Source of the DNA: Gammaproteobacteria bacterium
Lineage (GTDB): Bacteria > Pseudomonadota > Gammaproteobacteria > Beggiatoales > Beggiatoaceae
DNA: 38,952 bases
NCBI GenBank assembly: GCA_003645255.1
Contig: QNES01000019.1
Coordinates: forward strand, 1 to 38,952
Reading direction: 5' to 3'
This document shows positions 15,203 through 37,358 of this stretch, in pieces. Every line of letters starts with the position of its first letter. Position 1 is the stretch's first letter. A program made the translations under genes and the position numbers. The notes under the pieces are model-generated. The model was not told the origin of the DNA, searched no databases, and saw nothing but the letters and a program-made list of their open reading frames with translations.

Positions 15203-15685
15203 ATGGCAACAAATCCTATCAGTCGTTTCCAGTTTTTACGTGGCGATTTCAGAGGAAAACAACCATTGCGTCCACCATGGGCTGGTAGTGAAGCAGAATT
15301 TGTGATCAATTGCCAGCGTTGTGGTGAATGTATTAAGGTTTGCCCAGAAAATATTTTGGAAAAGGGGCGTGGTGGTTTTTCCCAAGTCAATTTTCAACGG
15401 GGTGAATGTACTTTTTGTGGTTACTGTGTTGATCACTGTCCTAATAATGCTTTACAACGGACAAATGGTCCACCTTGGCAAATAAAAGCCCACATTGATA
15501 CGCAATGTTTGATAAAACAAGGGATTACCTGTGTCACTTGCCATGAACATTGTGAACTTGAAGCGATACAATTTTCATTAGATCGCGTCGCTATCCCAAC
15601 AGTCAATCTTGAAATATGCAATGGCTGTGGTGCTTGTTATCAAGGATGTCCGGTTACGGCAATTATTATTAAGGAACGTGCGTGA
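15203..15685 (+). CDS. napF: Ferredoxin-type protein NapF
   Basis: A 160-residue iron-sulfur protein. Four cysteine clusters: Cys37/40/43/47, Cys69/72/75/79, Cys102/110/113/117 and Cys139/142/145/149. The first, second and fourth are classical CxxCxxCxxxC; the third is the irregular cluster also found in E. coli NapF. The N-terminal RPPWAGSEAEF matches RPPWSGDESHF of E. coli. NapF is cytoplasmic and linked to maturation of the iron-sulfur centre of NapA. The last codons (..GAA CGT GCG TGA) fall within a repeat element that fills the napF-napA gap. No strong ribosome-binding site is visible. Confidence 0.95.
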   Translation: MATNPISRFQFLRGDFRGKQPLRPPWAGSEAEFVINCQRCGECIKVCPENILEKGRGGFSQVNFQRGECTFCGYCVDHCPNNALQRTNGPPWQIKAHIDTQCLIKQGITCVTCHEHCELEAIQFSLDRVAIPTVNLEICNGCGACYQGCPVTAIIIKERA

Positions 15686-15794
15686 AATAGCGAGGGCGAT
15701 AACGAAGGTTTGCCCCTACATAATATAAAGTTTCGTAGGGGTAATCCCTTGTGATTACCCTTACTTTTGTCGAAAGTTATTTCAGGCACACTCC
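15673..15794 (+). mobile_element. MITE-like element M2 between napF and napA
   Basis: About 122 bases with terminal inverted repeats: GGAACGTGCGTGAAATAGC at the left; the right end, reverse-complemented, reads GGAGTGTGCCTGAAATAAC. Inside is a P2-type palindromic part (TTGCCCCTAC and GTAGGGGTAA..TTACCC). The left end covers the last four codons of napF, including its stop. A partial copy of the left end occurs at about 25083-25119, again spanning a stop codon. No coding frame. Confidence 0.72.
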
Positions 15795-15856
15795 TAAGTA
15801 GCACTTCAAATCAGTCCAAAGCTTTAGCTTTGCATAATGATGAAAAAAAAATGAAT

Positions 15857-18424: not shown

Positions 18425-18511
18425 ATGAATAGTCATGATACTATTGTTGCAATTCGTTACGCTTTGTACTCCTATCCTGAACAAATATATTTTAACCGGA
18501 GAACAGATTTT

Positions 18512-18898
18512 ATGAAAATGTCACTATTATGGGGATTAGTTTTAGTATTAGCTTCACTTCCCCAACTTGCCCTGTCCATTGAATCTTTGCGGGGGGATAA
18601 CCCCATTGAGGATATATCAGAAATCACCGTTTGGAAAAGGGTTCCTCCTGATTTTCAAACATTTGAAACAGCTTATGAACAGCGAGCCCCTTTGATTAGT
18701 CATTTCGTTGAAGGCTATAAGATTACCCGACAATCCAACGATTGTCTTGATTGTCATGATACAATTCACTTCACAGATGGGGATGGCAATGCCCTTAGTA
18801 AAATAGACAGTCGGCATTATTTCTGTCTTCAGTGTCATGTTCCTCAAGTGGATGCTGACTCACTGAAGGAAAACTATTTTGAATCTGCTAATGACTGA
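18512..18898 (+). CDS. napB: Periplasmic nitrate reductase, dihaem cytochrome c subunit NapB
   Basis: A 128-residue protein with a signal peptide (LLWGLVLVLASLPQLALS) and two haem-binding CXXCH motifs, CLDCH (78-82) and CLQCH (105-109). The flanking ISHFVEGYKIT and RHYFCLQCHVPQ are NapB hallmarks and carry the distal haem ligands His64 and His102. It passes electrons from a quinol-oxidising system to NapA. The start at 18512 has GGAG 10 bases upstream; an open frame from 18425, next to the napA stop, lacks a signal and is rejected. It is the last gene of this compact nap cluster. The quinol dehydrogenase (napC or napGH) is not in the window. Confidence 0.95.
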   Translation: MKMSLLWGLVLVLASLPQLALSIESLRGDNPIEDISEITVWKRVPPDFQTFETAYEQRAPLISHFVEGYKITRQSNDCLDCHDTIHFTDGDGNALSKIDSRHYFCLQCHVPQVDADSLKENYFESAND

Positions 18899-19287: not shown

Positions 19288-19320
19288 AAACCTGCCAGGT
19301 TTAAAAAACCTGGCAGGTTT
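19288..19320. repeat. Palindrome P3, copy 1 (AAACCTGCCAGGTTT arms)
   Basis: AAACCTGCCAGGTTT, loop AAA, then the exact reverse complement: perfect 15-bp arms. A second perfect copy is at 33431-33463 and a decayed one near 28967-28983. It may act as a hairpin terminator; sequence after the stem is only mildly T-rich. Confidence 0.85.
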
Positions 19321-23862: not shown

Positions 23863-23879
23863 GTTTAGAAATCGAGCCT

Positions 23880-23910
23880 CGATCCGATTTTTGAAAAAAT
23901 CTGATTTCTT
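23880..23910. repeat. Palindromic repeat P1, copy 7
   Basis: CGATCCGATTTTTGAAAAAATCTGATTTCT, one mismatch between arms near the outer end. It lies between two signalling genes. The open frame upstream of the next gene's ATG runs through it, so it is not coding. Confidence 0.7.
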
Positions 23911-23935
23911 TATTCGTTGCAAAAAGGAAAACATT

Positions 23936-25084
23936 ATGAAAACCCCCGTTATTATTTGTGTTGATGATGAAAGAACGTTACTTAACAGCCTTCAAACTGA
24001 ATTAAAATCCGCATTATGGGGTGAATATTTAATTGAAACAGCTGAAAGTGGAGAAGATGCGTTAGAACTGGTGGAAGAATTATTAGAAGAGGGTGCTGAT
24101 TTGCCCTTAGTAATCTCCGATCAACTCATGCCTGGGATGAAAGGAGATGAATTGTTAAGAAAAATTCATCTAATTGCACCCAAAACGATGAAAATTCTCT
24201 TAACGGGTCAAGCAAACCTTGACGCAGTGGGTAATATAATCAACCATGCCAATCTTTATCGTTATATTACGAAACCTTGGGAACCAACTAATTTGCTTAT
24301 GACTGTCAAAAAAGCCATTCAAAGTTATTTTCAAGAACAGGCACAGGTCAAATTTTATGCCGATTTAGAAATAAAAGTGGCTGAACGTACCCAACAATTA
24401 CAGGACAAAAATGAGTTTTTAAGTATGGCGGTGCATGACTTGAAAAATCCCCTTTCAGCTATTCAAGGTTTTTCGGAAATGATTAAATGTCATTTTGATG
24501 AGATTCCTAAAGAAATGGTGATTGATTTTGCCGAGCAGATATTTACCAGTTCCAGACATTTGTTTGATGTCATCAAAAATATATTAGATATTAACGCAAT
24601 TGAGGCGGGTAAAATGAATCCATCACTTGACGTGCTGGATATTCGGCAGACTTTGCAATGGTTAATTAAGCATTATAATGAAAGGGCAAAAGCTAAAAAC
24701 ATCACTTTGCAGTTTCAATATCCAGAAGAAGCATACTTTGTTAGAGTTGACGAAACACTTTTACGCCAGGTGCTAGATAATCTTCTTTCAAATGCCATTA
24801 AATATTCTCCAAGCGGAAAGCCGATCTATATTCGTTTTAACCAAGATGATCAATTTAGGGGCTGTGAAATACAAGATGAGGGTCCAGGATTAAATGATGA
24901 AGATCAAAAAAGGTTATTTAATCAATTCACCCGCTTAACGCCTCAACCTACTGGGAATGAACATTCAAGCGGTTTAGGTTTATTTATGGTTAAAAAATGG
25001 GTTGAAGCAATGCATGGTGAAGTCCAATGCGAAAGTATTTTAGGGCAAGGTAGCACTTTTAGGGTAAAATTTCCCGCTGCTTAG
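23936..25084 (+). CDS. Hybrid REC-histidine kinase
   Basis: A 382-residue soluble protein. A receiver domain (about 1-125: CVDDE, phosphoacceptor Asp62 in ISDQLMPG, Thr90 in LLTGQA, Lys113 in TKPW) of the RpfG-like style is joined by a coiled coil to a HisKA domain with His167 in SMAVHDLKNPLSAI. The ATPase domain has DNLLSNAIKYSPSG, DEGPGL and SSGLGLFMVKKWVEAMHG. AAGGA 7 bases before the ATG fixes the start. This kinase is of the ordinary type, without the insert found in its neighbours. It may be phosphorylated on Asp62 by the upstream CACHE kinase and pass on the signal; this is inferred from context. Confidence 0.94.
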   Translation: MKTPVIICVDDERTLLNSLQTELKSALWGEYLIETAESGEDALELVEELLEEGADLPLVISDQLMPGMKGDELLRKIHLIAPKTMKILLTGQANLDAVGNIINHANLYRYITKPWEPTNLLMTVKKAIQSYFQEQAQVKFYADLEIKVAERTQQLQDKNEFLSMAVHDLKNPLSAIQGFSEMIKCHFDEIPKEMVIDFAEQIFTSSRHLFDVIKNILDINAIEAGKMNPSLDVLDIRQTLQWLIKHYNERAKAKNITLQFQYPEEAYFVRVDETLLRQVLDNLLSNAIKYSPSGKPIYIRFNQDDQFRGCEIQDEGPGLNDEDQKRLFNQFTRLTPQPTGNEHSSGLGLFMVKKWVEAMHGEVQCESILGQGSTFRVKFPAA

Positions 25085-25119
25085 GAACGTGCCTGAAATA
25101 ACTAGGGCGATAACGAAGT
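25083..25119 (+). repeat. Partial copy of the M2 element left end
   Basis: AGGAACGTGCCTGAAATAAC and the following GGGCGATAACGAAG match the left end of the element at 15673-15709. The right half is missing. It starts at the stop codon of the upstream kinase. Confidence 0.65.
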
Positions 25120-25148
25120 TCACGAAACTAAAAACAGAAGAAATATAA

Positions 25149-25544
25149 ATGTCCCAAGCCGTTATTTTATGTGTAGATGATGAAAGAATCATTTTAGACA
25201 GTCTTCAAATACAACTTGAAGATGCCTTTGGTGATGCTTATCTTTATGAATTTGCTGAAAATGCTGAAGATGCCCTTGAACTGATTGAAGAATTGAATGA
25301 AGAGGGCTTAAATATTCTAGTTATTGTCTCTGATTGGCTCATGCCAGGTATCAAGGGGGATGAACTGTTGATTCGTGTTCATCAGCTGTTCCCTGATATT
25401 GTCAAAATTTTATTAACAGGTCAAGCTGATGAAACAGCCATTAAGCGAGTTCATAAGCAAGTTGAGCTCCAACGTTGTATCTATAAGCCCTGGGATGAGG
25501 AAGAATTAGTGAAAACCATTAAACAAGGTTTAAAAGAATCGTGA
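25149..25544 (+). CDS. Single-domain response regulator
   Basis: A 131-residue stand-alone receiver domain: CVDDE, Asp62 in VSDWLMPG, Thr90 in LLTGQA, Lys113 in IYKPWD. It closely resembles the receivers of the flanking genes, so it probably arose by tandem duplication. No output domain is attached, suggesting a phosphate shuttle or a protein-interaction role. Its stop codon overlaps the GTG start of the next gene by 4 bases (GTGA), so translation is coupled. Confidence 0.92.
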   Translation: MSQAVILCVDDERIILDSLQIQLEDAFGDAYLYEFAENAEDALELIEELNEEGLNILVIVSDWLMPGIKGDELLIRVHQLFPDIVKILLTGQADETAIKRVHKQVELQRCIYKPWDEEELVKTIKQGLKES

Positions 25545-27022
25545 AACAATCCGTTATTATTTGTGTCGATGATGAAAAAACTATACTGAATGCCCTTCAA
25601 ATGGAATTGATGGATGCACTAGGAGATGAGTATCTTATTGAAACCTCTGAGGGGGGTGATGATGCTTTGAGCCTATTTAAGGAATTGTTGGAAGAAAAAT
25701 ATGAAATTCCTTTAATTATATCAGACTACATCATGCCGGATATGCAAGGCGATGAACTTTTAGAACATATTCATACACTTTCTCCCAAAACATTTAAAAT
25801 TTTATTGACAGGTAAAACCAGTCGCAGTGAAATTGTCATTAATGCCGTTAATAATGCTAATTTGTATCGCTACATGCTTAAACCCTGGGATAAAGGAGAT
25901 TTGGTTTTAACGGTGTACGAAGCGGTAAAAAGTTATTTTAAAAATCAACTACTTGAAGAGCAAAATCAGGCACTCAAAGAAGTGAATGCCAAATTACGAG
26001 AGCGCACACAGGCATTATCTCAAACAATTGATCATCTTAAAGCCACTCAACAAGAATTAATTCAATCAGAAAAAATGGCAACCCTGGGTCAAGTGATTGC
26101 TGGCATTGCTCATGAAATTAATACCCCATTGGGTGCTATTTACTCTTCAGTGGAGAATATAGCCAAGGTTTTAAATCAAACTTTGGAACAATTACCTCTT
26201 TTTTTTAAATCACTTTCTTTACAAGAGCAGCAGGATTTTTTTGCCCTAGTCAAACAATCAAGTCCTAATGATACCATTTTATCTTCCAAAGAAAAACGCC
26301 AATATCGACGCGCCTTGATGCATAAATTAGATCAATACGCCACTGAAAATACACTGGTTATTGAAAATACATTGATTATTGCTGATACATTAGTGGAAAT
26401 GGGTATTTATGAAAATATTGATATTTTTTTACTTTGCTTAAAAACTTCTCAAAGTCAAAATATCTTAAATACAGCTTATCAATTAAATAGCTTAAAAAAA
26501 AGTACCCGAATCATTACACTGGCTTCAGAACGTGCCACTGAAGTCGTATCTGCCCTGAAAAAATTTGTTCATTATGATCAGATAGAAAAAGTTCAGGCTA
26601 ATCTTATTGAAGGTATTGAAATCGTTTTAACGCTGTATCATTATCAATTCAAACAGGGCGTGAAAATCATTAAAAATTATGGCGACTTGCCCCCTATTTG
26701 GTGTTATCCTAGTGAACTCAATCAAGTTTGGACAAATTTGGTTCATAATGCCTTACAAGCAATGAATAATCAAGGTACTTTAAAATTTGATGTGTTTGAA
26801 CAAGATAGTTTTGCAATAATTAGTATCACTGATAGTGGAACAGGGATTCCAGATGACATTAAGCCAAAAATTTTTAACCCCTTTTTTACAACTAAACCCG
26901 CCGGCGAGGGCAGTGGGTTGGGATTGGATATTGTCAAAAATATTGTTGAAAAACATGAGGGTAAAATAAACGTAGAAAGTATTGAAGGAAAAACGACATT
27001 TACTGTGTCTATTCCTATTTAG
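25541..27022 (+). CDS. REC-histidine kinase with insert-bearing HisKA domain
   Basis: A 493-residue protein starting at GTG inside the preceding stop (GTGA). The receiver covers about 1-125 (Asp62 in ISDYIMPD, Thr90, Lys114 in LKPW). A coiled coil of about 45 residues leads to His191 in GIAHEINTPLGAI. As in the kinase at 21415, a helical insert of about 120 residues (LPLFFKSLSLQEQQDFF.., KEKRQYRRALMHKL, VEMGIYENI) separates the two dimerisation helices. The ATPase domain has NLVHNALQAM, DSGTGIP and GEGSGLGLDIVKNIV. The repeated phrase ENTLVIENTLIIADTL inside the insert indicates a small internal duplication. It is probably co-transcribed with the single-domain REC gene. Confidence 0.94.
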   Translation: MKQSVIICVDDEKTILNALQMELMDALGDEYLIETSEGGDDALSLFKELLEEKYEIPLIISDYIMPDMQGDELLEHIHTLSPKTFKILLTGKTSRSEIVINAVNNANLYRYMLKPWDKGDLVLTVYEAVKSYFKNQLLEEQNQALKEVNAKLRERTQALSQTIDHLKATQQELIQSEKMATLGQVIAGIAHEINTPLGAIYSSVENIAKVLNQTLEQLPLFFKSLSLQEQQDFFALVKQSSPNDTILSSKEKRQYRRALMHKLDQYATENTLVIENTLIIADTLVEMGIYENIDIFLLCLKTSQSQNILNTAYQLNSLKKSTRIITLASERATEVVSALKKFVHYDQIEKVQANLIEGIEIVLTLYHYQFKQGVKIIKNYGDLPPIWCYPSELNQVWTNLVHNALQAMNNQGTLKFDVFEQDSFAIISITDSGTGIPDDIKPKIFNPFFTTKPAGEGSGLGLDIVKNIVEKHEGKINVESIEGKTTFTVSIPI

Positions 27023-27067
27023 GCATTCCCAAATATACCAAATGTTAGTTTTTTCTGCTCTTCTTAT

Positions 27068-27099
27068 AGAAATCCGATTTTTTCAAAAATCGGATTTCT
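27068..27099. repeat. Palindromic repeat P1, copy 8 (perfect arms)
   Basis: AGAAATCCGATTTTT, two central bases, and AAAAATCGGATTTCT: fully matched 15-bp arms. It lies in the gap between the REC-kinase and REC-cyclase genes. Confidence 0.85.
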
Positions 27100-27135
27100 T
27101 ATACCTACAAATTGAGACTAATCTGCTTTAGCAAA

Positions 27136-28872
27136 ATGATGAATCAACCGGTTATTATATGTGTTGACGATGAGCAAACGATACTGGATAGCTTGAAAAC
27201 CGAACTAAAGCAAACATTTAGCGAGCAATATCTTATAGAAATCGCCCAAAGCGGTGAAGAGGCATTAGAGTTAGTTGAAGAATTATTAGAAGAAGAATAT
27301 GAAATACCCTTAGTTATCTGTGACTACATAATGCCTAATATGAAAGGAGATGAACTGTTAAAACGTTTCCACAGCCTTTCTCCCAACACGCGCAAAATTA
27401 TGCTTACAGGGCAAGCGGATTTTAAAGCCGTCGCTAATGCTATCAAGTATGCCAAGTTATATCGTTATATTCCCAAACCCTGGGATACAGAAGATTTGGT
27501 TTTAACCGTTTCTGAAGCGATTAAAAGTTATGTTCAAGATAAACAAATTGCAGAAAAAAATAAGGAATTGGAAAAAAAAGTAAAAACATTCCATAAATTT
27601 GTGCCTGTTCAATTTCTTGAACTTTTAAATTTAGAAGACAGTGCTCCTATTGAATTAGGTACTTGCGTTGAAAAAAACATGAGTATCATGTTTGCTGATA
27701 TTCGGGGATTTACCACGCTATCTGAAAAAATGACACCACAAGAAAATTTCAATTTCATTAATGCTTATTTAAGTCAGATGGAACCACTGATTGATCAACA
27801 TCATGGATTTATTGACAAATATATTGGTGATGGAATTATGGCATTATTCCCAATCCAGGCTAATGATGCGGTGCAAGCTGCGATTGCTATGTTAAAAAAG
27901 CTTGTTACCTATAATCAAGGGCGGCAACATGCCGACTATGAATCCATTTCAATCGGTATTGGCATCCATACTGGTGCCTTAATGCTTGGTACTGTAGGCG
28001 GAAAAAACCGTATGGATGGTACAGTTATTTCAGATGCGGTGAATTTAGCCTCACGGGTTGAAAGTTTAACCAAAACTTATGGTACCCCCCTATTAATTAC
28101 GGAGCAAACTTATCAACAATTAACCGATGTTTCGCAATATAAGATTCGGAATATTGACAATGTGACAGTTAAAGGTAAAACAAAATCGGTTATTGTTTAT
28201 GAGGTTTTTGATACCGATTCATCGACAAGCATTGAAATGAAATTAAAAACAAAAGCCTCTTTTGAACAAGGTATTCAATGTTTTCATCAAGCACAATTTA
28301 ATGATGCCCAAGTTTTTTTTAAAGAAGTCTGTCAAATTAATGGTAATGATAAGGTGGCGCAAATTTATCTGAACAATTGCAAAAATATATTAAGCATGAT
28401 AATGCCACAATCGTTTCATATTCTGATAGTTGATGACATACCTCTCAACGTGCATGCTTTGATTCACCTTTTAAGCAAAAATAATTTTGAAGTTTCACTT
28501 GCCAAAAGTGGTGAAATAGCTCTGTCGATGGTTAAACAAAATTTACCACATTTGATTTTATTAGATGTGATGATGCCAGGCATAGATGGTTTTGAAACCT
28601 GTCGGCGACTTAAAGCGGAACCACAAACCCAGGGTATTCCTATTATTTTTATAAGTGGTTTAACGGATACAACTGATAAAATTAAAGGTTTTAAAGTGGG
28701 TGCTTTAGACTACATTACTAAACCTTTTCAGCGCGAAGAAGTACTAATACGAATTAAAACCCATTTAAACCTAAGCTATTTGCAACGCAAATGTCAATTA
28801 AAAACTTCCTTAAAAATCAGTAATTTAGAACTGAGAGCGAAAGTAAAACTTATGATAGCACAGGGAATTTAA
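27136..28872 (+). CDS. REC-adenylate/guanylate cyclase-REC response regulator
   Basis: A 578-residue protein. REC1 (about 1-125; Asp63 in ICDYIMPN) is followed by a coiled coil and the KFVPVQFLELL linker. The class III nucleotide cyclase domain (about 182-345) has FADIRGFTTLSE (metal Asp188) and YIGDGIMALF (metal Asp232), with GKNRMDGTVISDAVNLASRVE. A short TPR-like stretch (FEQGIQCFHQAQFNDAQVFFKEV, about 376-400) leads to REC2 (about 427-550; Asp477 in LLDVMMPG). Both metal aspartates are present, so activity is plausible; cAMP versus cGMP cannot be decided here. The start is ATG 27136 or 27139, without a ribosome-binding site; a TTG at 27112 is rejected. It is the likely output of the signalling block. 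Confidence 0.92.
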   Translation: MMNQPVIICVDDEQTILDSLKTELKQTFSEQYLIEIAQSGEEALELVEELLEEEYEIPLVICDYIMPNMKGDELLKRFHSLSPNTRKIMLTGQADFKAVANAIKYAKLYRYIPKPWDTEDLVLTVSEAIKSYVQDKQIAEKNKELEKKVKTFHKFVPVQFLELLNLEDSAPIELGTCVEKNMSIMFADIRGFTTLSEKMTPQENFNFINAYLSQMEPLIDQHHGFIDKYIGDGIMALFPIQANDAVQAAIAMLKKLVTYNQGRQHADYESISIGIGIHTGALMLGTVGGKNRMDGTVISDAVNLASRVESLTKTYGTPLLITEQTYQQLTDVSQYKIRNIDNVTVKGKTKSVIVYEVFDTDSSTSIEMKLKTKASFEQGIQCFHQAQFNDAQVFFKEVCQINGNDKVAQIYLNNCKNILSMIMPQSFHILIVDDIPLNVHALIHLLSKNNFEVSLAKSGEIALSMVKQNLPHLILLDVMMPGIDGFETCRRLKAEPQTQGIPIIFISGLTDTTDKIKGFKVGALDYITKPFQREEVLIRIKTHLNLSYLQRKCQLKTSLKISNLELRAKVKLMIAQGI

Positions 28873-29031: not shown

Positions 29032-30126
29032 ATGTCAACACCTCAAACGATTTACGAAAGTTTACACCACCAAGGTTTCAGTCGGCGTGACTTTCTCAAA
29101 TTTTGTGGGATAAGTGCCACGATCATGGGCTTATCACCATCCATGATACCCAGGATTGCTAAGGCACTGGAAAACACACCTAAAAAATCGGTCATTTGGC
29201 TCTCCTTTCAAGAGTGTACAGGTTGTACTGAATCCCTGATTCGCGCCCATGCGCCAACAATTGAGGGATTGATTTTTGACCATATCTCTTTAGATTATCA
29301 TCATACTTTGCAAGCTGCATCGGGTAGAGCCGCTGAGCAGGCTCGTGAAAATGCCATGAAAGAACATCACGGCGATTATTTATTAGTAGTTGACGGTTCA
29401 ATCCCAATGGGAAATCCTGGCTATTCGACCAGTGCAGGGATAAGTAGTTTAGATATGTTAAAAGAAGTCGCAAGCGGTGCTGGTGCGATTATTGCCATTG
29501 GTACTTGTGCTGCTTACGGGGGGCTACCCCATGCTGCTCCTAATCCAACCGGAGCGGTGTCGGTGGAAGAACTCATTACTAATAAGCCGCTTATTAATAT
29601 TCCCGGTTGTCCACCGATTCCAGCGGTGATTGCTGGTGTCATTTCTTATATAGTCACTTTTGGTCAATTGCCAAAACGAGATTCATTAAAACGTCCTATC
29701 ACTTTTTTTGGACAAAATATTCATGATCGTTGTTATCGCCGTTCCTTTTATGATCAGGGACTGTTTGCAAACAGTTTTGATGATGAAGGGGCTAAAAAAG
29801 GCTGGTGCTTATACAAACTAGGCTGCAAAGGGCCTGTCACTTATAACGCTTGTGCCACTACTAAATGGAATGAAAACGTCAGTTTTCCCATTGAAGCGGG
29901 GCATGGTTGTTTAGGTTGCTCGGAACCGCATTTTTGGGATGCCGGTCATTTTTATCAAGCACTCTCAGTACCCACCCGCGAGATTGTGGGGACAGCAGGT
30001 TATGCCTTAGCGGCAGGAGCTGCGGTGGGTGTCGCCTCAGCAATGTTAAATAAGAAGAAAAAAGTGGATGCGACCAAAAACCACGAAACAGTGACGATTC
30101 ACGATTTAGAGAGGACATCATCATGA
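29032..30126 (+). CDS. hynS: [NiFe] hydrogenase small subunit (Isp-type, group 1)
   Basis: A 364-residue precursor. The Tat signal (SRRDFLKFCGISATIMG, twin Arg 18-19) is followed by the proximal-cluster motif ECTGCTES (Cys62, Cys65), GTCAAYGG and NIPGCPPIP. The medial/distal region is HDRCYRRSFYDQG, KGWCLYKLGCKGP, NACATTKWN and GHGCLGCSEPHFWD. A C-terminal hydrophobic helix (YALAAGAAVGVASAML) anchors it in the membrane. Its iron-sulfur clusters carry electrons from the Ni-Fe site of the large subunit. AAGGGG 6 bases before the ATG sets the start. The stop overlaps isp1 (ATGA). In Thiocapsa and Allochromatium the order is hynS-isp1-isp2-hynL; here hynL is missing. Confidence 0.95.
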   Translation: MSTPQTIYESLHHQGFSRRDFLKFCGISATIMGLSPSMIPRIAKALENTPKKSVIWLSFQECTGCTESLIRAHAPTIEGLIFDHISLDYHHTLQAASGRAAEQARENAMKEHHGDYLLVVDGSIPMGNPGYSTSAGISSLDMLKEVASGAGAIIAIGTCAAYGGLPHAAPNPTGAVSVEELITNKPLINIPGCPPIPAVIAGVISYIVTFGQLPKRDSLKRPITFFGQNIHDRCYRRSFYDQGLFANSFDDEGAKKGWCLYKLGCKGPVTYNACATTKWNENVSFPIEAGHGCLGCSEPHFWDAGHFYQALSVPTREIVGTAGYALAAGAAVGVASAMLNKKKKVDATKNHETVTIHDLERTSS

Positions 30127-30782
30127 ATTATGTAGACTTCCTATTATGGGTGCGAGGCCCTGCTTTTCAGATCGCGACGGCTATTTTTATTTTTGGGCTT
30201 TCATGGCGTTTGCTTGAAATTTTGTCATTAAGTCGCAAGCCAGAACTCGCTGTTGTCCGCGAAAGGGGCATCGCAGGTGGTTTTCGTACCATTTTCCGTC
30301 GATTTTTACCGGTTGACGATAACACTTTTCAGCGTTCTGCTTTTATTATCACCGCTGGCTATATTTTCCATTTGGGTTTTTTTATCATCCTCTTGCTGTT
30401 TGTTCCGCATATTCTTTTCTTCCGTGAATTCTTTGGTTTTAGTTGGCCCGGTCTCCCAACGCCAGTGATTGGTATCATCACCATTATGACCCTGTTAGCC
30501 CTCATCGCCCTATTAATCAACCGCATGAGACACCCTGTCTTACGATTTTTATCTGGCTTTGAAGATTATTTTGTTTGGATAGTCACTTTTTTACCTGTAT
30601 TAACAGGGTATATGGCGTTTCATCATTTTTTTCACTACCCGTTGATGTTAGCCCTGCATATTCTCAGTGTGGAACTACTGATGATAGTGTTTCCCTTTAC
30701 AAAGTTAATGCATACCTTCACTTGGTTTATTTCACGTTGGTACACCGGGAGTCGCGCCGCCCAAAAAGGAGTACAAGTATGA
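30123..30782 (+). CDS. isp1: Isp1, b-type cytochrome membrane subunit (NarI/DsrM-like)
   Basis: A 219-residue membrane protein with about five hydrophobic helices (IATAIFIFGLSWRLLEIL; SAFIITAGYIFHLGFFIILLL; IGIITIMTLLALIALLI; YFVWIVTFLPVLTGYMAF; LMLALHILSVELLMIVF). Histidines in the second (FHLGFF) and in the HH and LHIL segments of the last helices are the likely haem b ligands. The family (NarI, DsrM, HdrE) exchanges electrons with the quinone pool. Coupled starts at both ends (ATGA with hynS and with isp2) show one operon. The position between hynS and isp2 is diagnostic of Isp1. Confidence 0.92.
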   Translation: MNYVDFLLWVRGPAFQIATAIFIFGLSWRLLEILSLSRKPELAVVRERGIAGGFRTIFRRFLPVDDNTFQRSAFIITAGYIFHLGFFIILLLFVPHILFFREFFGFSWPGLPTPVIGIITIMTLLALIALLINRMRHPVLRFLSGFEDYFVWIVTFLPVLTGYMAFHHFFHYPLMLALHILSVELLMIVFPFTKLMHTFTWFISRWYTGSRAAQKGVQV

Positions 30783-32047
30783 GTACTGCTAGTTTTGAAC
30801 GTGGCTATAATGCCTTTAAAGAAAAAATAGATGCGCCCATCGCCTCATATTTTAGCAGTTGCGTTCACTGTGGGATGTGTGCTCAAGCTTGTATGTTTTT
30901 CACCGAAACCGGTGACCCTAAGTATACGCCCATTTATAAACTTGAACCCATGCGAAAAGTATGGGAACAAGAATACACCTTATTAGGAAAATTAAAGGCC
31001 CTTTTAGGAATAAGTCAAAAATTGACCGATGCCGAATTGGCAGAATGGCAAGAATTGATTTATGGCAGTTGTACCCTATGTGGACGCTGTTCAATGGTTT
31101 GTCCTGTCGGTAATGATTTAGCCTATATGATTCATAAAGCGCGTGAAGGAATTGCCGCAGCAGGACATGCTCCCAAAGGGCTAATTGATGCGACTAAACG
31201 GGCTGTCATAATTGGGAGTGCAATGGGAGTGAAATTAGCTACCCTGCAAGCACAAATTAAACACACTGAACACAATACGGGGATAAGAATTCCTTTGGAT
31301 GAGCCAGGGGTTGATTACCTGGTGATACTATCCGCTCTGGAAGTGGTCAATTTTCCAGAATACTTGGAAGCCCTCGCCAAAATTATGAAACAGGCGGATA
31401 AGACTTGGACGCTCTCATCAATAGCGTTTGAAGCGACCAATCCAGGTCTTCAAATAGGTGTTTCTGATATTGCTAAAGAATTAGTCAGCCGTGTTATTAA
31501 TGTAGCAGAAGAACTCGGCGTGTCAACCGTTATCAGTCCAGAGTGTGGACATGCTTATACAGCAATCCGTTGGGAAGGACCCAATTTAATCGGTCGGTCC
31601 TTTTCTTTCAAAGTCCAGCATATTCTTGAAGTGTTGGATGAACTGCGCGAACAGGGCAAGCTGAAAACCGAGGGCTTTGAAAAAGCACGTTTGACATTCC
31701 ACGATCCTTGCCAATTAATACGGCGCGGCGGTGTTATAGAACAACCACGTCACTTACTGAAAATGGTAGCCACTCACTTTGTTGAAATGGAAGACCCTGG
31801 CAAAATGAATTGGTGCTGTGGTGGTGGAGGTGGTTTGGTAACACAAGAAGAATCTGAAGAACTCCGTACCAAAGCCTTCAATCGCAAAAAGACGCAACTT
31901 GATGCACTTGAGGTAGATACACTCGTCACTGCCTGTTCTAACTGTCGTATTGTCCTTGAAGAAGGGTTTGAAGCTTATGAAATGGAAATGCCAGTGGTTG
32001 GGTTAACAGAAATGGTTGCCGAACATTTGGTTGAATCGGAAGTATAA
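30779..32047 (+). CDS. isp2: Isp2, HdrD/DsrK-like iron-sulfur protein, copy 1
   Basis: A 422-residue cytoplasmic protein. Two ferredoxin-type sites, CVHCGMCAQAC (about 28-38) and CTLCGRCSMVCP (about 97-108), are followed by two CCG-type segments: PECGHAY..HDPC and NWCCGGGGG..ACSNC. HdrD and DsrK relatives use the CCG cysteines for a special 4Fe-4S cluster doing disulfide or thiol chemistry. With Isp1 it forms a transmembrane redox module attached to the hydrogenase. AAGGAG stands 8 bases before the ATG, which overlaps the isp1 stop. A near-copy follows at 32138. Confidence 0.93.
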   Translation: MSTASFERGYNAFKEKIDAPIASYFSSCVHCGMCAQACMFFTETGDPKYTPIYKLEPMRKVWEQEYTLLGKLKALLGISQKLTDAELAEWQELIYGSCTLCGRCSMVCPVGNDLAYMIHKAREGIAAAGHAPKGLIDATKRAVIIGSAMGVKLATLQAQIKHTEHNTGIRIPLDEPGVDYLVILSALEVVNFPEYLEALAKIMKQADKTWTLSSIAFEATNPGLQIGVSDIAKELVSRVINVAEELGVSTVISPECGHAYTAIRWEGPNLIGRSFSFKVQHILEVLDELREQGKLKTEGFEKARLTFHDPCQLIRRGGVIEQPRHLLKMVATHFVEMEDPGKMNWCCGGGGGLVTQEESEELRTKAFNRKKTQLDALEVDTLVTACSNCRIVLEEGFEAYEMEMPVVGLTEMVAEHLVESEV

Positions 32048-32077
32048 TTTTTAGGGGATTTCTTTATAACCCGCTCA

Positions 32078-32109
32078 AGAAATCCGATTTTTGCCAAAAA
32101 TCGGATTTA
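32078..32109. repeat. Palindromic repeat P1, copy 9
   Basis: AGAAATCCGATTTTTGCCAAAAATCGGATTTAT; arms matched over 13 bases. It lies between the two isp2 copies. Confidence 0.8.
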
Positions 32110-32137
32110 TAATTTACTACCATTAGGAGTACAATTT

Positions 32138-33409
32138 ATGAGTGCTGCCAGTTTTGAACGTGGCTATAATGCCTTTAAAGAACAAATAGATGCGCCCATC
32201 GCATCCTATTTTAGCAGTTGTATTCACTGTGGAATGTGTGCTCAAGCCTGTTTGTTTTACACCGAAACAGGTGAGCCTAAATATACCCCCATCTACAAAC
32301 TTGAACCCATGCGAAAAATATGGGAACAAGAATACACCTTATTTGGCAAATTAAAGGTTCTGTTAGGGATCAGTCAAAAATTGACCGATGCCGAGTTGGC
32401 AGAATGGCAAGAATTGATTTATGGCAGTTGTACCCTATGTGGACGCTGTTCAATGGTTTGTCCTGTCGGTAATGATTTAGTTTATATGATTCATAAAGCG
32501 CGTGAAGGAATGGCAGCAGCGGGGCATGCACCGCATAGTCTCATAGAGGGTAATCAGCGTGCTATAAACATTGGCAGTGCCACCGGGGTAGGATTACCCA
32601 CTTTGCAGGCGCAAATTAAAAACATTGAACGCGACACAGGCATAAAAATTCCCATTGATGTGCCAGGGGTTGAATACATGGCATTGATTTCTGCGATAGA
32701 AATTCTCAACTATCCGGAATATCTCAGTTCTCTGGCTAAAATCATGAAACATGTCGGTAAAACTTGGACACTGTCATCAAAAGGTTTTGAAGCGACTAAT
32801 GCTGGGATTCAAATAGGCGTTTCAGATATTGCTAAAGAATTGCTCATGCGAATTGTTAACGAAGCTGAAGAACTCGGCGTTTCAACCGTTATCAGTCCGG
32901 AATGTGGACATGCTTACATGGTGATACGATGGGAAGGGCCTAATTTAATTGCTCGCCCCTTTAATTTTAAGGTCCAACATATTGTTGAATTATTAGATGA
33001 ATGGCGCGAACAAGGCCAATTGGAAACGGAAGGTTTTGAAAAAGCGCGTCTAACTTTCCATGATCCCTGCCAATTAGCGCGACGGGGTGGTGTCATTGAA
33101 CAGCCCCGAAAATTATTAAACATGGTAGCGAATCAGCTGGTAGAAATGGAAGATCGCGGTAAAATGAATTGGTGCTGTGGTGCCGGCGGTGGTTTGGCGG
33201 CACAAGAAGAATCTGAAGCACTCCGTCTCAAAGCCTTCAATCGCAAAAGAACTCAACTCAAAACACTCAAAGTCTCCCAATTAGTCACCGCCTGTGCTCA
33301 TTGTCGGGAACATTTGGAAGAAGGGCTTGAAAACAACGACATGAAAATGTCAGTTGTTGGTTTGACCGAGATGGTTGTCAAGCATTTGGTTGATAAAAAT
33401 GAAACGTAG
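32138..33409 (+). CDS. isp2: Isp2, HdrD/DsrK-like iron-sulfur protein, copy 2
   Basis: A 423-residue paralogue of the preceding gene in tandem, with its own ribosome-binding site (AGGAG 8 bases upstream). All cluster cysteines are kept (CIHCGMCAQAC, CTLCGRCSMVCP, PECGHAY, HDPC, NWCCGAGGG, ACAHC). By my count about 11 residues differ from copy 1 over the first 131, but differences are much denser in the rest. The two copies may serve different partners, or one may be a spare after loss of the downstream large subunit. Where hynL is expected, the next gene is nuoN on the opposite strand. Confidence 0.93.
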   Translation: MSAASFERGYNAFKEQIDAPIASYFSSCIHCGMCAQACLFYTETGEPKYTPIYKLEPMRKIWEQEYTLFGKLKVLLGISQKLTDAELAEWQELIYGSCTLCGRCSMVCPVGNDLVYMIHKAREGMAAAGHAPHSLIEGNQRAINIGSATGVGLPTLQAQIKNIERDTGIKIPIDVPGVEYMALISAIEILNYPEYLSSLAKIMKHVGKTWTLSSKGFEATNAGIQIGVSDIAKELLMRIVNEAEELGVSTVISPECGHAYMVIRWEGPNLIARPFNFKVQHIVELLDEWREQGQLETEGFEKARLTFHDPCQLARRGGVIEQPRKLLNMVANQLVEMEDRGKMNWCCGAGGGLAAQEESEALRLKAFNRKRTQLKTLKVSQLVTACAHCREHLEEGLENNDMKMSVVGLTEMVVKHLVDKNET

Positions 33410-33430: not shown

Positions 33431-33463
33431 AAACCTGCCAGGTTTTAAAAACCTGGCAGGTTT
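33431..33463. repeat. Palindrome P3, copy 2, between convergent isp2 and nuoN
   Basis: AAACCTGCCAGGTTTT, one central base, then AAAACCTGGCAGGTTT: perfect 16-bp arms. It lies 22 bases after the second isp2 stop and 69 bases after nuoN on the other strand, so it could terminate transcription from both sides. Confidence 0.85.
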
Positions 33464-33532: not shown

Positions 33533-35170
33533 CTAAATTCCTAAAGCCTCCAAACATACGGTCATCAACGTATGTGGCATGATACCAAGCAGTAAAATGA
33601 CCAGGGCATTGGCACTGAGGGCGATACGCATATCCATAGGCGCTTCAATCGGTGTCCTATTTTCAGCTTTGTCAAAATACATGAGCTTGATAATTCGTAA
33701 ATAGTAGAATGCTCCAATTACGGCAAATAAGACACCTAAAACGGCTAACCAGATAAAGCCGGCATTGACGACTTGTGCTAAAACGTACCATTTTGCCCAA
33801 AATCCAATCATGGGGGGTACTCCTGCCATTGATAGCATCAAAATTAACATGAGCGCGGCGTACCAAGCATTTCTTTCGTTTAAGCCCTTGAAGTCATTAA
33901 TGAGTGAAGCTTCAAAACCGGCATGACTGAGCAGCACTATCATACCAAAGGCTCCTAATGTCATGAGCGTATAAACAACGACATAAAACATGGAGGCGGC
34001 ATAGCCCTCTTGCGTGCCTGTAAGTATTCCAAGCATTAAGTAGCCAACATGGGCAATTGTTGAATAGGCTAACATGCGTTTAATATTCGTTTGGGCAAGC
34101 GCAATAATATTACCGGTTACCATGGACAAAATTGATAGCAGGATCAATATATTTTGCCAATCGGTCTGTAAATTTTGCATACCATCAACTAATAAGCGCA
34201 TTAACATGGCAAATGCGGCAATTTTCGGAGCGCTGGCAATAAATAACGTCACTGCTGTTGGTGCGCCTTGATAGACATCGGGTATCCATACATGGAATGG
34301 CACTGCACCTAATTTAAAAGCGACACCGATGATGACAAACACTAAACCAAATACTAAAATTCTGTATGATTGTAGAACTTGATCAACGATGGGGTTAATA
34401 GCCGCTAAAGCGATACCATTATCCGTATTTTCTGCCAGGATTTGGGCAATCGCTGCGTTTGCTCCCCCCGCATTTTCACTAACTTGCTGTCCAATAGCAA
34501 TGACGGTAATGTTATGATCTTTAATCTCACTGATGCTTTGTGCCACTGACACCGCAATGGTGTGATCATCTGCTATTTGATGGATGCTTTGGGCTAGCAC
34601 TGTTAAGTCTAAAGTGCCGGTGACACCATATAGCATAGACATACCATATAGCAACATGCCTGATGCAATGGCACCTAAAACAAAATACTTCATTGCCGCT
34701 TCAGACGCGAGTTGCGATTGACGGTGCATGGCAACCATTGTATATAAAGATAACGAAAGTAATTCTAAGCCAAGATAGACTGTCAGCAGACTATGGGCGG
34801 AAACCATAATCATCATGCCCAAAGTGGCAAACAAGCCCAATACAAAATATTCACCTAAGCGGAAGTGACGATCACGCAGGTAGTTCCGTGAATAGATAAA
34901 CGCGACAAACACGATCATGACGATAAAAAGTTTTAGCACCGCTCCCATTGGATCGCTGACGAACATATCATTCATCGCCAAAGTCCGTTGTTCAGGGAAC
35001 GTAGCCATAATCAGGATGGCAGTACCTATTAAAGTACCTTGTGTCAACTGATAAGTCATTGAACGCAAGTGCTTTGGTAGATAGGCATCAATAATCAAAA
35101 TAAGACAAGCCATCGTGAGCAGCACGATTTCAGGCAGCAGCCCTAGCACATTCAAATTTGCAATAGTCAT
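33533..35170 (-). CDS. nuoN: NADH-quinone oxidoreductase subunit N, isolated from other nuo genes
   Basis: A 545-residue antiporter-like membrane subunit of complex I with about 14 helices. Family blocks: LLPEIVLL, LGLELLSLSLYTM (Glu in the proton path), KYFVLGAIASGMLLYG, FKLGAVPFHVWIPDVYQGAPTAVTLFIASAPK (key Lys residues), NIKRMLAYSTIAHVGY and GVPPMIGFWAKW. The usual length is about 480; a hydrophilic insert of about 70 residues (roughly 193-263, Ala/Ile/Asn-rich) accounts for the excess. nuoN is normally last in the nuo operon, after nuoM, but no nuoM lies upstream here. The start at 35170 (MTIANLNVL) is preferred over 35236, although its ribosome-binding site is weak. Confidence 0.93.
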   Translation of the reverse strand: MTIANLNVLGLLPEIVLLTMACLILIIDAYLPKHLRSMTYQLTQGTLIGTAILIMATFPEQRTLAMNDMFVSDPMGAVLKLFIVMIVFVAFIYSRNYLRDRHFRLGEYFVLGLFATLGMMIMVSAHSLLTVYLGLELLSLSLYTMVAMHRQSQLASEAAMKYFVLGAIASGMLLYGMSMLYGVTGTLDLTVLAQSIHQIADDHTIAVSVAQSISEIKDHNITVIAIGQQVSENAGGANAAIAQILAENTDNGIALAAINPIVDQVLQSYRILVFGLVFVIIGVAFKLGAVPFHVWIPDVYQGAPTAVTLFIASAPKIAAFAMLMRLLVDGMQNLQTDWQNILILLSILSMVTGNIIALAQTNIKRMLAYSTIAHVGYLMLGILTGTQEGYAASMFYVVVYTLMTLGAFGMIVLLSHAGFEASLINDFKGLNERNAWYAALMLILMLSMAGVPPMIGFWAKWYVLAQVVNAGFIWLAVLGVLFAVIGAFYYLRIIKLMYFDKAENRTPIEAPMDMRIALSANALVILLLGIMPHTLMTVCLEALGI

Positions 35171-35308
35171 TTCTATTTTTTCACCATTGGTTAATTCAAA
35201 AAAAGTATAGATTTTCAAGCGCGACATTTTGAGCATCTACCCAAAAAAAACCGTCAATGAGCATTTTATCATGTATGGGCGTTTTTTGGATATAATGTTG
35301 AGCAGTAT

Positions 35309-35517: not shown

Positions 35518-35822
35518 GGATTGCATCATTTAAATCATTTACCATTGCGATACCACGATTGGAATTATCTGGGTAAGTTTCATTAATTTTTGTGTTTCAA
35601 AAATGGTTGGCAGGTGGGCGTTTGATCAATACGTCGATTTATCCTTACATTTCTAATTGTTGTTACTGTTATGTAGGTAAAGAAAAGTATTTTAATATTT
35701 TTAATGAAGTTCAAAGATATCCTATTTTTTAAATCTGATTTCTACTTCTCAAAATGTCAAAAAATTTATAACTACCTACTTATTAACTTTTGTTAAATTA
35801 AATGAATCGGAGAGTAAAGATT

Positions 35823-37358
35823 ATGATTCGTAAATTGTGGGCATTTACTGCAGGTGCCGCTTTGCTGTTGGTACAAGGTGCTAGCATCGCATCAGTTGAT
35901 GCGCCGCCTAATGAGTTTTCAGAAGAAACTAAGGCATGTATTGCATGTCATAAGGAAACTTCCTTGGGTGTCGTTCAGCAATGGGGCGATAGTAAGCACC
36001 ATCGTGCTAAAGTAGGTTGTTATGAATGCCATAAGGCTGAAGCCGGTGAAATTGATGCCTTCATCCATGAAGAATTCGATAAAAAAGCGATTGGCAAAAA
36101 CAAACCCATTTCCATCATCGTTTCACCGAAAGACTGCTCAAACTGTCATGAAAAAGAGGTGGCAGAATATACCGCTTCCCACCATTCCCAAGGGGGGCGT
36201 ATTATTGGTTCGTTGGATAACCTCTTAGCCGATGTGGTTGAAGGTAACCGTGCCATGGTGACTGAGTCCTTTCCTGAAGGTGTTTCTGCAGCGGTTGTCA
36301 ATGGTTGTTGGCAATGTCATGGTTCAGAAGTCAAGGTCATGAAGGATGGCTCTTTGGATCCAGCCACTTGGCCAAATACGGGGATTGGACGTATTAATCC
36401 TGATAAATCCAGGGGTTCTTGCTCAGCCTGTCACTCTCGTCACAAATTCTCTGTAGAACAAGCCAGAAATCCTGAAAACTGTGGTAAATGCCACATGGGT
36501 CCTGATCATCCACAAGAAGAAATTTATTACGAATCCAAACATGGTATTGCTTTCCATGCCAACAAAGATAAGATGAATATGGATCGTTCTAAATGGATTG
36601 CAGGTGAAGATTATGATGCCGCGCCAACCTGTGCTACTTGCCACATGAGTGCTACCAAGGAACAAGGGGTTAACCATGATGTTGGTATGCGTATTTCTTG
36701 GAATAATCGTCCTGCCATTTCGGTACGTCCTGAAACAACCGATGCTAAAATGGATTTACCAGGTCAACATGTGAAATGGGATGAACGCCGTGATAATATG
36801 AAAAATGTGTGTTCCGCTTGCCACGGTGAATCTTTCATTGATAACTTCTATATTCAATATGATGGCCAAATTGAATTATACAATAATAAGTTTGCCAAAC
36901 CGGGTTTAGCTTTATACCAAGCTGCTCTTCCACTCTTGCCAAGAGATGCTAAGTTTGCCAATCATCTTGACTTTGTTTGGTTTGAAATTTGGCATCACGA
37001 AGGTCGCCGTGCTCGTCATGGTGCATCTATGATGGGTCCAGATTGGACACAGTGGCATGGAAACTATGAAGTGGGCAAACACTTCTATGGTAAGTACGTT
37101 CCTGAACTTGAAGAATTGATAGAAAAGAATCTTGATTCTGAAGATGCGAATAAAAAAGCGTCTGCCCTAGCACTCAAAAATTTGCTTCACGAAATACTTA
37201 GCGACGAGTTCGTTGTCACTGATGAGAAAACTGGAAAAGAAGTAAAGAGTACTGGTCATAGCTGGTTTATTGGTAAAATGAGTCCTGAAGAAGCAAAAGC
37301 CAGAAAGGAAAGTCGGGAAGCGTTCATTCAGCGGTATGGTGAGCAAACCGATAGATAG
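35823..37358 (+). CDS. hao: Octaheme cytochrome c of the hydroxylamine oxidoreductase (HAO) family
   Basis: A 511-residue exported cytochrome: signal peptide (KLWAFTAGAALLLVQGASIAS) and eight CXXCH motifs starting at Cys39, 66, 105, 162, 200, 220, 270 and 330. The fourth (CWQCH) corresponds to the catalytic haem of HAO. The order, spacing and blocks such as YYESKHGIAFHAN and FEIWHHEGRRARHGASMMGPDW are HAO-like. In ammonia oxidisers HAO oxidises hydroxylamine; in sulfur and epsilonproteobacterial relatives the enzyme is thought to work reductively on nitrite or hydroxylamine. This organism has Nap and no visible amo genes, favouring reduction. GGAG 10 bases upstream supports ATG 35823 over 35802. 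It is probably monocistronic, ending at a strong terminator. Confidence 0.94.
   Translation: MIRKLWAFTAGAALLLVQGASIASVDAPPNEFSEETKACIACHKETSLGVVQQWGDSKHHRAKVGCYECHKAEAGEIDAFIHEEFDKKAIGKNKPISIIVSPKDCSNCHEKEVAEYTASHHSQGGRIIGSLDNLLADVVEGNRAMVTESFPEGVSAAVVNGCWQCHGSEVKVMKDGSLDPATWPNTGIGRINPDKSRGSCSACHSRHKFSVEQARNPENCGKCHMGPDHPQEEIYYESKHGIAFHANKDKMNMDRSKWIAGEDYDAAPTCATCHMSATKEQGVNHDVGMRISWNNRPAISVRPETTDAKMDLPGQHVKWDERRDNMKNVCSACHGESFIDNFYIQYDGQIELYNNKFAKPGLALYQAALPLLPRDAKFANHLDFVWFEIWHHEGRRARHGASMMGPDWTQWHGNYEVGKHFYGKYVPELEELIEKNLDSEDANKKASALALKNLLHEILSDEFVVTDEKTGKEVKSTGHSWFIGKMSPEEAKARKESREAFIQRYGEQTDR

What the first reader, a model, noticed from the sequence alone, without database searches (positions are those of the whole stretch)
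29032..33409. Isp-type hydrogenase operon with isp2 duplicated and the large subunit missing
The known purple-sulfur arrangement is hynS-isp1-isp2-hynL. Here hynS-isp1-isp2 is intact, with stop/start overlaps, but a second isp2 stands where hynL should be, followed by a convergent gene. Either the catalytic subunit is encoded elsewhere, or the module has been rewired so that the small subunit and Isp proteins serve another redox partner.
Basis: partly seen in the sequence, partly recalled or inferred. Interest (0 to 1): 0.66.

Follow-up and report, generated by a model that had tools for sequence, protein, structure and literature searches.

The report
Hydrogenase arm, catalytic subunit encoded elsewhere
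This sulfur bacterium keeps the wiring genes of a hydrogen-burning enzyme in one place and the gene for its catalytic half elsewhere, and it has a second, differently wired adapter gene beside a cytochrome gene, so one catalyst may be plugged into two electron circuits.

Summary
In detail: 29032-33409 encodes hynS-isp1-isp2-isp2', two intact isp2 genes and no hynL. "Missing" is wrong for the genome: one complete group 1 large subunit (HynL, 579 aa) stands alone on contig C186, sister to the HynL of G019, whose operon is intact. In single-contig G003 hynL lies about 1 Mb from the operon, so the split is real. It is seen in 8 of 20 family genomes with isp2.

Unexpectedly, the genome has two small subunits for one large one. 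HynS2 (C56) keeps the Tat signal and all 11 cluster ligands, lacks the membrane tail and follows an octaheme cytochrome gene. Extra small subunits recur in Gammaproteobacteria: of 16 examined, 6 are fused to and 6 lie beside a c-type cytochrome. The distal-cluster loop reads IHDRCYRR in 103 of 103 Isp-paired rows and in 0 of 13 extra Isp-family rows.

Best reading: HynL made in trans serves a membrane HynS1-Isp1-Isp2 complex and a soluble, cytochrome-linked HynS2. Sharing is inferred, not shown.

The parts
29032..30126 (+). hynS1: [NiFe] hydrogenase small subunit, 364 aa, Tat signal, all 11 cluster ligands, hydrophobic C-terminal tail, distal-cluster loop IHDRCYRR
30123..30782 (+). isp1: membrane protein, 219 aa, four hydrophobic segments, no cysteine
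30779..32047 (+). isp2a: Fe-S protein (4Fe-4S dicluster and CCG domains), 14 Cys, each conserved in all 40 rows aligned
   Evidence: the tool's longer TTG start at 30575 is rejected, ATG 30779 overlaps the isp1 stop
32080..32108 (.). perfect palindromic repeat between isp2a and isp2b, with an imperfect second copy at 1044-1072
32138..33409 (+). isp2b: second intact isp2, 14 of 14 Cys and 81 of 81 invariant positions kept, dN/dS about 0.17 against isp2a
33431..33463 (.). perfect palindromic repeat just after isp2b, where hynL would begin; further copies at 19288-19320 and on C8, half copies on C56

Best explanation
The locus is the membrane arm of a group 1e (Isp-type) uptake hydrogenase whose catalytic subunit is supplied in trans from a solitary hynL. 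HynL is matured by the Hyp proteins and the peptidase, docks in the cytoplasm onto a small subunit that carries the Tat signal, and is exported with it. Docked on HynS1 it is anchored to Isp1, and electrons go through Isp1 to Isp2a or Isp2b and on to the quinone pool or a cytoplasmic acceptor. Docked on HynS2 (contig C56) it becomes a soluble periplasmic enzyme that hands electrons to c-type cytochromes, here probably the octaheme protein encoded 100 bp upstream of hynS2. Putting hynL in its own unit lets the two small subunits share it. Shown: the genes, the displacement of hynL, the 2:1 count, conservation and motif changes, cytochrome linkage. Inferred: docking of HynL on HynS2, export, electron routes, role of the second Isp2.
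For: One HynL and two small subunits in the genome. HynL, HynS1 and Isp2 all group with G019, whose operon is intact, so the C186 gene is the displaced partner. Maturation: HypA, HypD and HycI by search, HypB and a HypC-like frame by eye. HynS2 keeps the Tat signal, 11 of 11 ligands and 122 of 128 conserved core positions, but stops before the membrane tail. Its clade also holds the HynS2 of G003 and G027, which sits in the operon as hynS1-isp1-isp2-hynS2. A Thiomargarita MAG has hynS1-isp1-isp2-hynS3-hynL: two small subunits and one large in a row. In 232 class genomes the same 48 carry S and L; S exceeds L in 6. Of 16 extra small subunits examined, 6 are fused to a CxxCH tail in place of the anchor and 6 have a same-strand gene with c-type heme motifs beside them. 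The tail is hydrophobic (best 19-residue mean 1.21 or more) in HynS1 and all 102 other Isp-paired rows and in none of 13 extra 1e-type rows. Loop 230-237 is IHDRCYRR in 103 of 103 Isp-paired rows and in 0 of the 13; Tyr235 is lost in 12 of 13, and in each of four lineages.
Against: No experiment shows that HynL binds HynS2. Three extra small subunits of the 1d type (G029 twice, G026) keep the Tyr of the loop although they lie beside cytochrome genes. Four of 16 extras have no cytochrome beside them (G003, G027, G008 C138, L143). Five family genomes have hynL apart with no extra 1e-type small subunit found (G006, G015, G023, G031; and G005, where no small subunit was found at all), so displacement does not need sharing; in G017 a second small subunit coexists with an intact operon. 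The assembly is 96.7% complete, so a second hynL could be unseen. In one search only 5 of 11 candidates were scored in G104 and G162, so their L count could be low.
Confidence: 0.6

Rival explanations
1. Ordinary group 1e hydrogenase with its hynL moved elsewhere by operon break-up; HynS2 is a redundant or decaying paralogue without a role of its own, and the second isp2 is a plain tandem duplicate.
For: hynL is displaced in 8 of 20 family genomes with isp2, with at least six changes between split and contiguous on the HynL tree; five of those eight have no extra 1e-type small subunit. nuoN and the hyp genes are scattered too. Palindromic repeats lie between the isp2 copies and after isp2b.
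Against: HynS2 is intact, keeps all ligands, belongs to a lineage shared with two other species, and shows the same loop change as cytochrome-fused relatives. HynS1-HynS2 dN/dS is about 0.16 and Isp2a-Isp2b about 0.17.
Confidence: 0.22
2. HynS2 and the other extra small subunits are exported Fe-S electron carriers that no longer bind any large subunit.
For: Most stand apart from hynL, and 12 of 16 are linked to cytochromes that could be their only partners.
Against: All four ligands of the proximal cluster, which faces the large subunit (recalled), are kept in 13 of 13; 107-122 of 128 conserved core positions are kept, and the changes are densest near the distal cluster. Two HynS3 genes lie directly beside hynL.
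Confidence: 0.1
3. HynS1-Isp1-Isp2-Isp2 works without HynL, with another redox partner in place of the catalytic subunit.
For: No hynL in the operon.
Against: An orthologous HynL is encoded in the same genome; HynS1 keeps the tail and the loop of Isp-paired subunits.
Confidence: 0.05
4. Assembly artefact: hynL really follows isp2 and the contig is misjoined.
For: isp2a and isp2b share an exact 85-base stretch, long enough to confuse a short-read assembler.
Against: A misjoin inside that stretch would give one chimeric isp2, not two full ones in tandem; hynL lies inside its own contig with unrelated genes on both sides; the split is seen in single-contig G003.
Confidence: 0.03

Closest known systems
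Isp-type (group 1e) [NiFe] hydrogenase hynS-isp1-isp2-hynL of Thiocapsa and Acidithiobacillus
   Same: Same four proteins. The closest solved structure of both HynL and HynS2 is 3MYR (that it is the Allochromatium vinosum enzyme is recalled). HynL carries RICGVC and SFDPCIACAVH with 15 residues after the end of the 3MYR chain.
   Different: hynL is unlinked, isp2 is doubled, and a second, anchorless small subunit is present. [quoted passage not shown]
Acidianus brierleyi SUL2 hydrogenase (isp genes after S and L)
   Same: Another case where isp1-isp2 are not between S and L (PMC11018855, passages).
   Different: There S and L remain adjacent; an archaeal enzyme of another subgroup.
Group 1d oxygen-tolerant hydrogenase with cytochrome b (subgroup by motif, recalled)
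   Same: G029 and G026 carry extra anchorless small subunits of this type beside cytochrome c genes.
   Different: 46% identical to HynS2 in the alignment, CTCCSES proximal motif, Tyr235 kept.
Periplasmic hydrogenases that feed c-type cytochromes (Desulfovibrio type, group 1b; recalled)
   Same: Proposed working mode of HynS2: soluble periplasmic dimer delivering to cytochromes.
   Different: HynS2 belongs by sequence to the 1e small subunits and no large subunit is encoded beside it.

Membership tests
Group 1e Isp-type [NiFe] hydrogenase | Small subunit with Tat signal and ligands for three Fe-S clusters | tested here: met
   HynS1: TIGR00391, Tat signal model TIGR01409, 11 ligand positions; HynS2: Tat motif RR and the same 11 positions
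Group 1e Isp-type [NiFe] hydrogenase | Large subunit of group 1 with both active-site cysteine motifs | tested here: met
   HynL on C186, 789.7 bits to PF00374, closest solved relative 3MYR; not in the window
Group 1e Isp-type [NiFe] hydrogenase | Isp1 membrane protein and Isp2 Hdr/DsrK-like Fe-S protein | tested here: met
   by likeness to TmcC/HmcE and DsrK/TmcB/HmcF below their cut-offs, and by homologues in canonical operons
Group 1e Isp-type [NiFe] hydrogenase | Gene order S-isp1-isp2-L in one operon | tested here: not met
   S-isp1-isp2-isp2, L on another contig
Group 1e Isp-type [NiFe] hydrogenase | Maturation genes hypA-F and a peptidase | tested here: inconclusive
   HypA, HypD, HycI found by search; HypB and a HypC-like MCLAVP frame by eye; hypE and hypF were not searched
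Group 1e Isp-type [NiFe] hydrogenase | H2 oxidation linked to Isp1-Isp2 | not testable with these tools
   needs an activity assay
Cytochrome-linked extra small subunit (class proposed here) | No large subunit of its own | tested here: inconclusive
   G000: 2 S, 1 L, assembly 96.7% complete; single-contig G134: 2 S, 1 L
Cytochrome-linked extra small subunit (class proposed here) | No hydrophobic tail, altered distal-cluster loop, c-type cytochrome beside or fused | tested here: met
   HynS2: ends at residue 315, loop IHDRCSRR, octaheme gene 100 bp upstream

The most novel reading that the evidence does not exclude
Across Gammaproteobacteria there is a modular 'one large, several small' hydrogenase: a single catalytic subunit is shared by dedicated small subunits that differ in their electron exit, one membrane-bound and Isp-linked, others soluble and wired or fused to c-type cytochromes. 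In this lineage hynL became an independent gene as part of that sharing.
Probability: 0.5. Interest if true: 0.78.

Novelty: new variant of a known kind. Interest (0 to 1): 0.62.

Why it matters
[NiFe] hydrogenases are usually treated as fixed pairs of one small and one large subunit. If one HynL serves several small subunits, a cell can send electrons from H2 to sulfur or quinone metabolism at the membrane or to periplasmic cytochromes by choosing which small subunit to make. That is a simple and testable form of redox switching, fitting for bacteria that live between oxygen, nitrate and sulfide. It would also mean that counting large subunits underestimates hydrogenase variety, and the heme-fused small subunits could serve as ready-made parts for wiring hydrogenases to electrodes or cytochromes.

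Tried and rejected
Rejected: loss of the catalytic subunit; assembly error; isp2b as a pseudogene (by contrast G006 has a broken second isp2 fragment with a stop); the '1 TAG' that the search counted in the HynS2 genes of G003 and G027 as an internal stop (the frames are open). The octaheme gene downstream in the window (35802-37358) was considered as a partner of HynS1 and set aside: it lies beyond a convergent nuoN, and no full homologue was seen in the 17 kb around the G003 operon. The proposal that hynL is displaced because small subunits share it is weakened by five split genomes without an extra 1e-type small subunit. A domain that seemed, by eye, common to the HynS3 tail and the octaheme protein was not tested and is not claimed. 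Promoter and terminator scans gave about what shuffles give. Pfam found no family in isp1 or in the second C56 cytochrome. No structure was predicted. Literature: nine searches of open-licence PMC papers; I saw their listings and passages of 13 papers, no whole text. In what I saw there was no description of extra small subunits sharing a large subunit or of a heme-fused HynS. PMC6501319 ('two small subunits') and PMC3578206 speak of other things.

The largest extra lineage holds three rows flagged as long branches. The loop window was looked at because of the data, so its rank is descriptive. For the Isp2 invariants five divergent rows were left out of 40. The three 1d-type extras were left out of the motif and tail tests and are reported apart. 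G008 (contig ends 0.3 kb after isp2) and G022 (fragments) were left out of the split count. The 16 extras are those I looked at; genomes with several small subunits that turned up only (for example G339, G357, G368) were not examined. G335 and G347 were judged from about 7 kb of flank only; their large subunits were not counted genome-wide. In one search part of the candidates were scored in many genomes (for instance 5 of 11 in G104 and G162, 5 of 8 in G026). No background rate for cytochrome neighbours was computed.
Full report
What is there. The window is the whole of contig C19 (38,952 bases) of an assembly of 313 contigs, 96.67% complete. At 29032-33409 lie hynS1, isp1, isp2a and isp2b, all open, with ATGA overlaps between the first three and a 90-base gap before isp2b. 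HynS1 matches TIGR00391 far above cut-off; Isp1 resembles TmcC/HmcE and the two Isp2 resemble DsrK, TmcB and HmcF, all below those models' cut-offs. A convergent nuoN follows.

Where the large subunit is. A search of the genome with PF00374 gives one match, a full protein on contig C186: 579 aa, with RICGVC near the N-terminus and SFDPCIACAVH followed by 15 residues, the form expected before C-terminal processing. The closest solved structure is 3MYR, for HynL and for HynS2 (the Allochromatium vinosum enzyme, recalled). It is a solitary gene between a YciB-like and an ApaH-like gene (names by eye). HypA lies on C30, HypD on C8 with a HypB-like gene (by eye) beside it, a peptidase of the HycI family on C161, and a frame with MCLAVP next to hypA looks like HypC. 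HypE and HypF were not searched. The tested parts of an active hydrogenase are present, dispersed over several contigs.

The split is real and recurrent. On trees, HynS1, HynL and Isp2a/b each group with G019, a family member with an intact hynS-isp1-isp2-hynL operon (HynL 83% identical; support 95, 98 and 98). So the C186 hynL is the displaced original partner. G003 is a single 4.8-Mb contig; its hynL is about 1 Mb from hynS1-isp1-isp2. Of 36 family genomes examined, 20 have an isp2 match; in these hynL is apart in 8 (G000, G003, G005, G006, G015, G023, G027, G031), next to the operon in 10, and unresolved in 2 (G008, G022). On the HynL tree the split/contiguous state needs at least 6 changes over 37 rows. 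The two species of the same genus (G001, G002) gave no match for HynL, HynS or Isp2. Among the 80 named loci kept (the best of 578), 63 have S-isp1-isp2-L, one of them with an extra S before L, 15 run off the contig before hynL could be seen, 2 have S-L without isp, and none shows a split.

The second isp2. Isp2b keeps 14 of 14 cysteines and all 81 positions that are invariant in 33 relatives (Isp2a differs at two of them); dN/dS against Isp2a is about 0.17 (0.136/0.81), so both look to be under selection. The copies share an exact 85-base stretch, possibly from gene conversion. The duplication is about as old as the split from G019. The only other second isp2 found among 57 genomes is a broken fragment in G006. 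Its function is open: an alternative cytoplasmic end or a hetero-oligomer.

Two small subunits, one large. PF14720 finds a second small subunit, HynS2, on C56. It is 73% identical to HynS1 over the shared part, has the Tat motif and all cluster ligands, but ends where HynS1's tail begins. That tail in HynS1 is only moderately hydrophobic (best 19-residue mean 1.53, under the 1.6 threshold used), yet typical: the 102 other Isp-paired rows range from 1.21 to 2.07, and none of 13 extra 1e-type rows reaches 1.2. hynS2 starts 100 bases after an octaheme gene of the HAO/hydrazine-dehydrogenase-like kind (8 CxxCH, PF13447; below the cut-off of the hydrazine dehydrogenase model); a second multiheme gene converges on it. 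HynS2 forms a clade (support 99) with the second HynS of G003 and G027, which there follows isp2 directly: hynS1-isp1-isp2-hynS2. A Thiomargarita MAG (L143) has hynS1-isp1-isp2-hynS3-hynL, and G008 has hynS3-hynL on one contig plus another HynS beside a diheme cytochrome.

How general it is. Among 232 class genomes, HynS (E 1e-55 or better) and HynL (E 1e-80 or better) occur in the same 48; S outnumbers L in 6 (G000, G026, G104, G134, G145, G162), counts agree in 41, and in G049 hynL is cut into two pieces. Not every candidate was scored, so L could be undercounted in G026, G104 and G162; G000, G134 and G145 had every candidate scored, and one search also found two full L in G026. In the four outside the family the extra HynS carries, in place of the anchor, a tail of 71-79 residues with one CxxCH; these are the only 4 of 124 HynS frames checked with such a motif. 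Pfam sees a cytochrome c domain below cut-off in the three of these four that I tested, and above it in G347. A search with the fused protein over 370 class genomes, 78 of them with a match, shows the fusion in six genomes of five families (G104, G134, G145, G162, G335, G347). Of the 16 extra small subunits that I examined, 6 are fused to a heme domain, 6 have a same-strand gene with c-type heme motifs beside them (G000, G017, G008 C22, G029 twice, G026), and 4 have neither (G003, G027, G008 C138, L143). No background rate for cytochrome neighbours was computed.

Electron exit. In 103 of 103 Isp-paired rows positions 230-237, which hold two ligands of the distal cluster (His231, Cys234; assignment recalled from solved hydrogenases), read IHDRCYRR. 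None of the 13 extra 1e-type small subunits has that sequence; Tyr235 is Ser in 10, Ala in 1, Pro in 1, Tyr in 1. The 13 need at least four origins on a tree built without this loop, with three long-branch rows in the largest group; position 235 is changed in all four lineages, and so are 70 and 199. The window 225-243, chosen after seeing the data, ranks first of 116 equal windows of conserved columns, and 228-240 is among the top 3 of 119. Meanwhile 107-122 of 128 conserved core positions and all 11 ligands are kept (paired rows: 119 or more). HynS that lack Isp1 but have their own HynL (Cellvibrionaceae, Dasania) keep the Tyr, and so do the three 1d-type extras. So the change marks the 1e-derived extra subunits, not every cytochrome-linked one.

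Mechanism. In known [NiFe] hydrogenases the Tat signal on the small subunit exports both subunits (recalled). A pool of matured HynL could then be drawn by HynS1 to the Isp1-Isp2 membrane complex or by HynS2 to a soluble complex with cytochromes. A paper on archaeal Isp enzymes models S and L outside, Isp1 in the membrane and Isp2 inside, with quinone and cytoplasmic outlets (PMC11018855, passages). Octaheme cytochromes of orange Beggiatoaceae reduce nitrite (PMC6449678, abstract and passages); I did not compare them with ours by sequence. H2-driven reduction of nitrogen oxides through HynS2 is possible but untested. Beggiatoa sp. 35Flor oxidises H2 (PMC4959497, listing and passages).

How hynL may have left. 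Palindromes with other copies in the genome lie between isp2a and isp2b and right after isp2b. A MITE interrupting hupL is reported in Thiomargarita (PMC4853749, passages including the abstract). Rearrangement at dispersed repeats is a plausible route, not shown.

Verdict. The large subunit is not missing but displaced. The operon is a variant of a known kind. The new point is the recurrent extra, largely cytochrome-linked small subunits without a large subunit of their own.

Noticed in passing
window 35802-37358: Octaheme HAO/hydrazine-dehydrogenase-like cytochrome, homologous to the octaheme gene in front of hynS2 on C56.
   Followed up: partly
window 33533-35236: nuoN stands alone, with no nuoM-like gene beside it (by eye), another sign of scattered operons in this genome.
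   Followed up: no
window 15203-18898: Genes that by eye look like napF-napA-napB, a periplasmic nitrate reductase.
   Followed up: no
window 21415-28872: A row of response-regulator and histidine-kinase genes with alike receiver domains (by eye) directly upstream of hynS1.
   Followed up: no
window 19288-19320 and 33431-33463; 1044-1072 and 32080-32108: Two families of palindromic repeats; the first also has copies on C8 and half copies on C56.
   Followed up: partly
isp2a and isp2b, offsets 261 and 258: An exact 85-base shared stretch in genes that are otherwise 77-78% identical in protein, suggesting gene conversion.
   Followed up: no
L107:5736-6095 (G006 C34): Broken second isp2 fragment on the same strand downstream of an intact hynS-isp1-isp2; the whole-genome match contains a stop.
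   Followed up: no
L219:4945-6156 and L239:5469-6680: An NnrS gene (PF05940, tested in L219) lies close to the heme-fused small subunit in G145 and, by sequence likeness, in G335, hinting at nitrogen-oxide metabolism.
   Followed up: no
L101:9674-11104 and L143:13629-15068: HynS3 proteins carry a C-terminal extension of about 160 residues without a CxxCH motif; in L101 no Pfam family was found there.
   Followed up: partly
G227 C43 and C47 (L225, L226): hynS-isp1-isp2 and hynL each lie at a contig end, so no split can be claimed there.
   Followed up: yes
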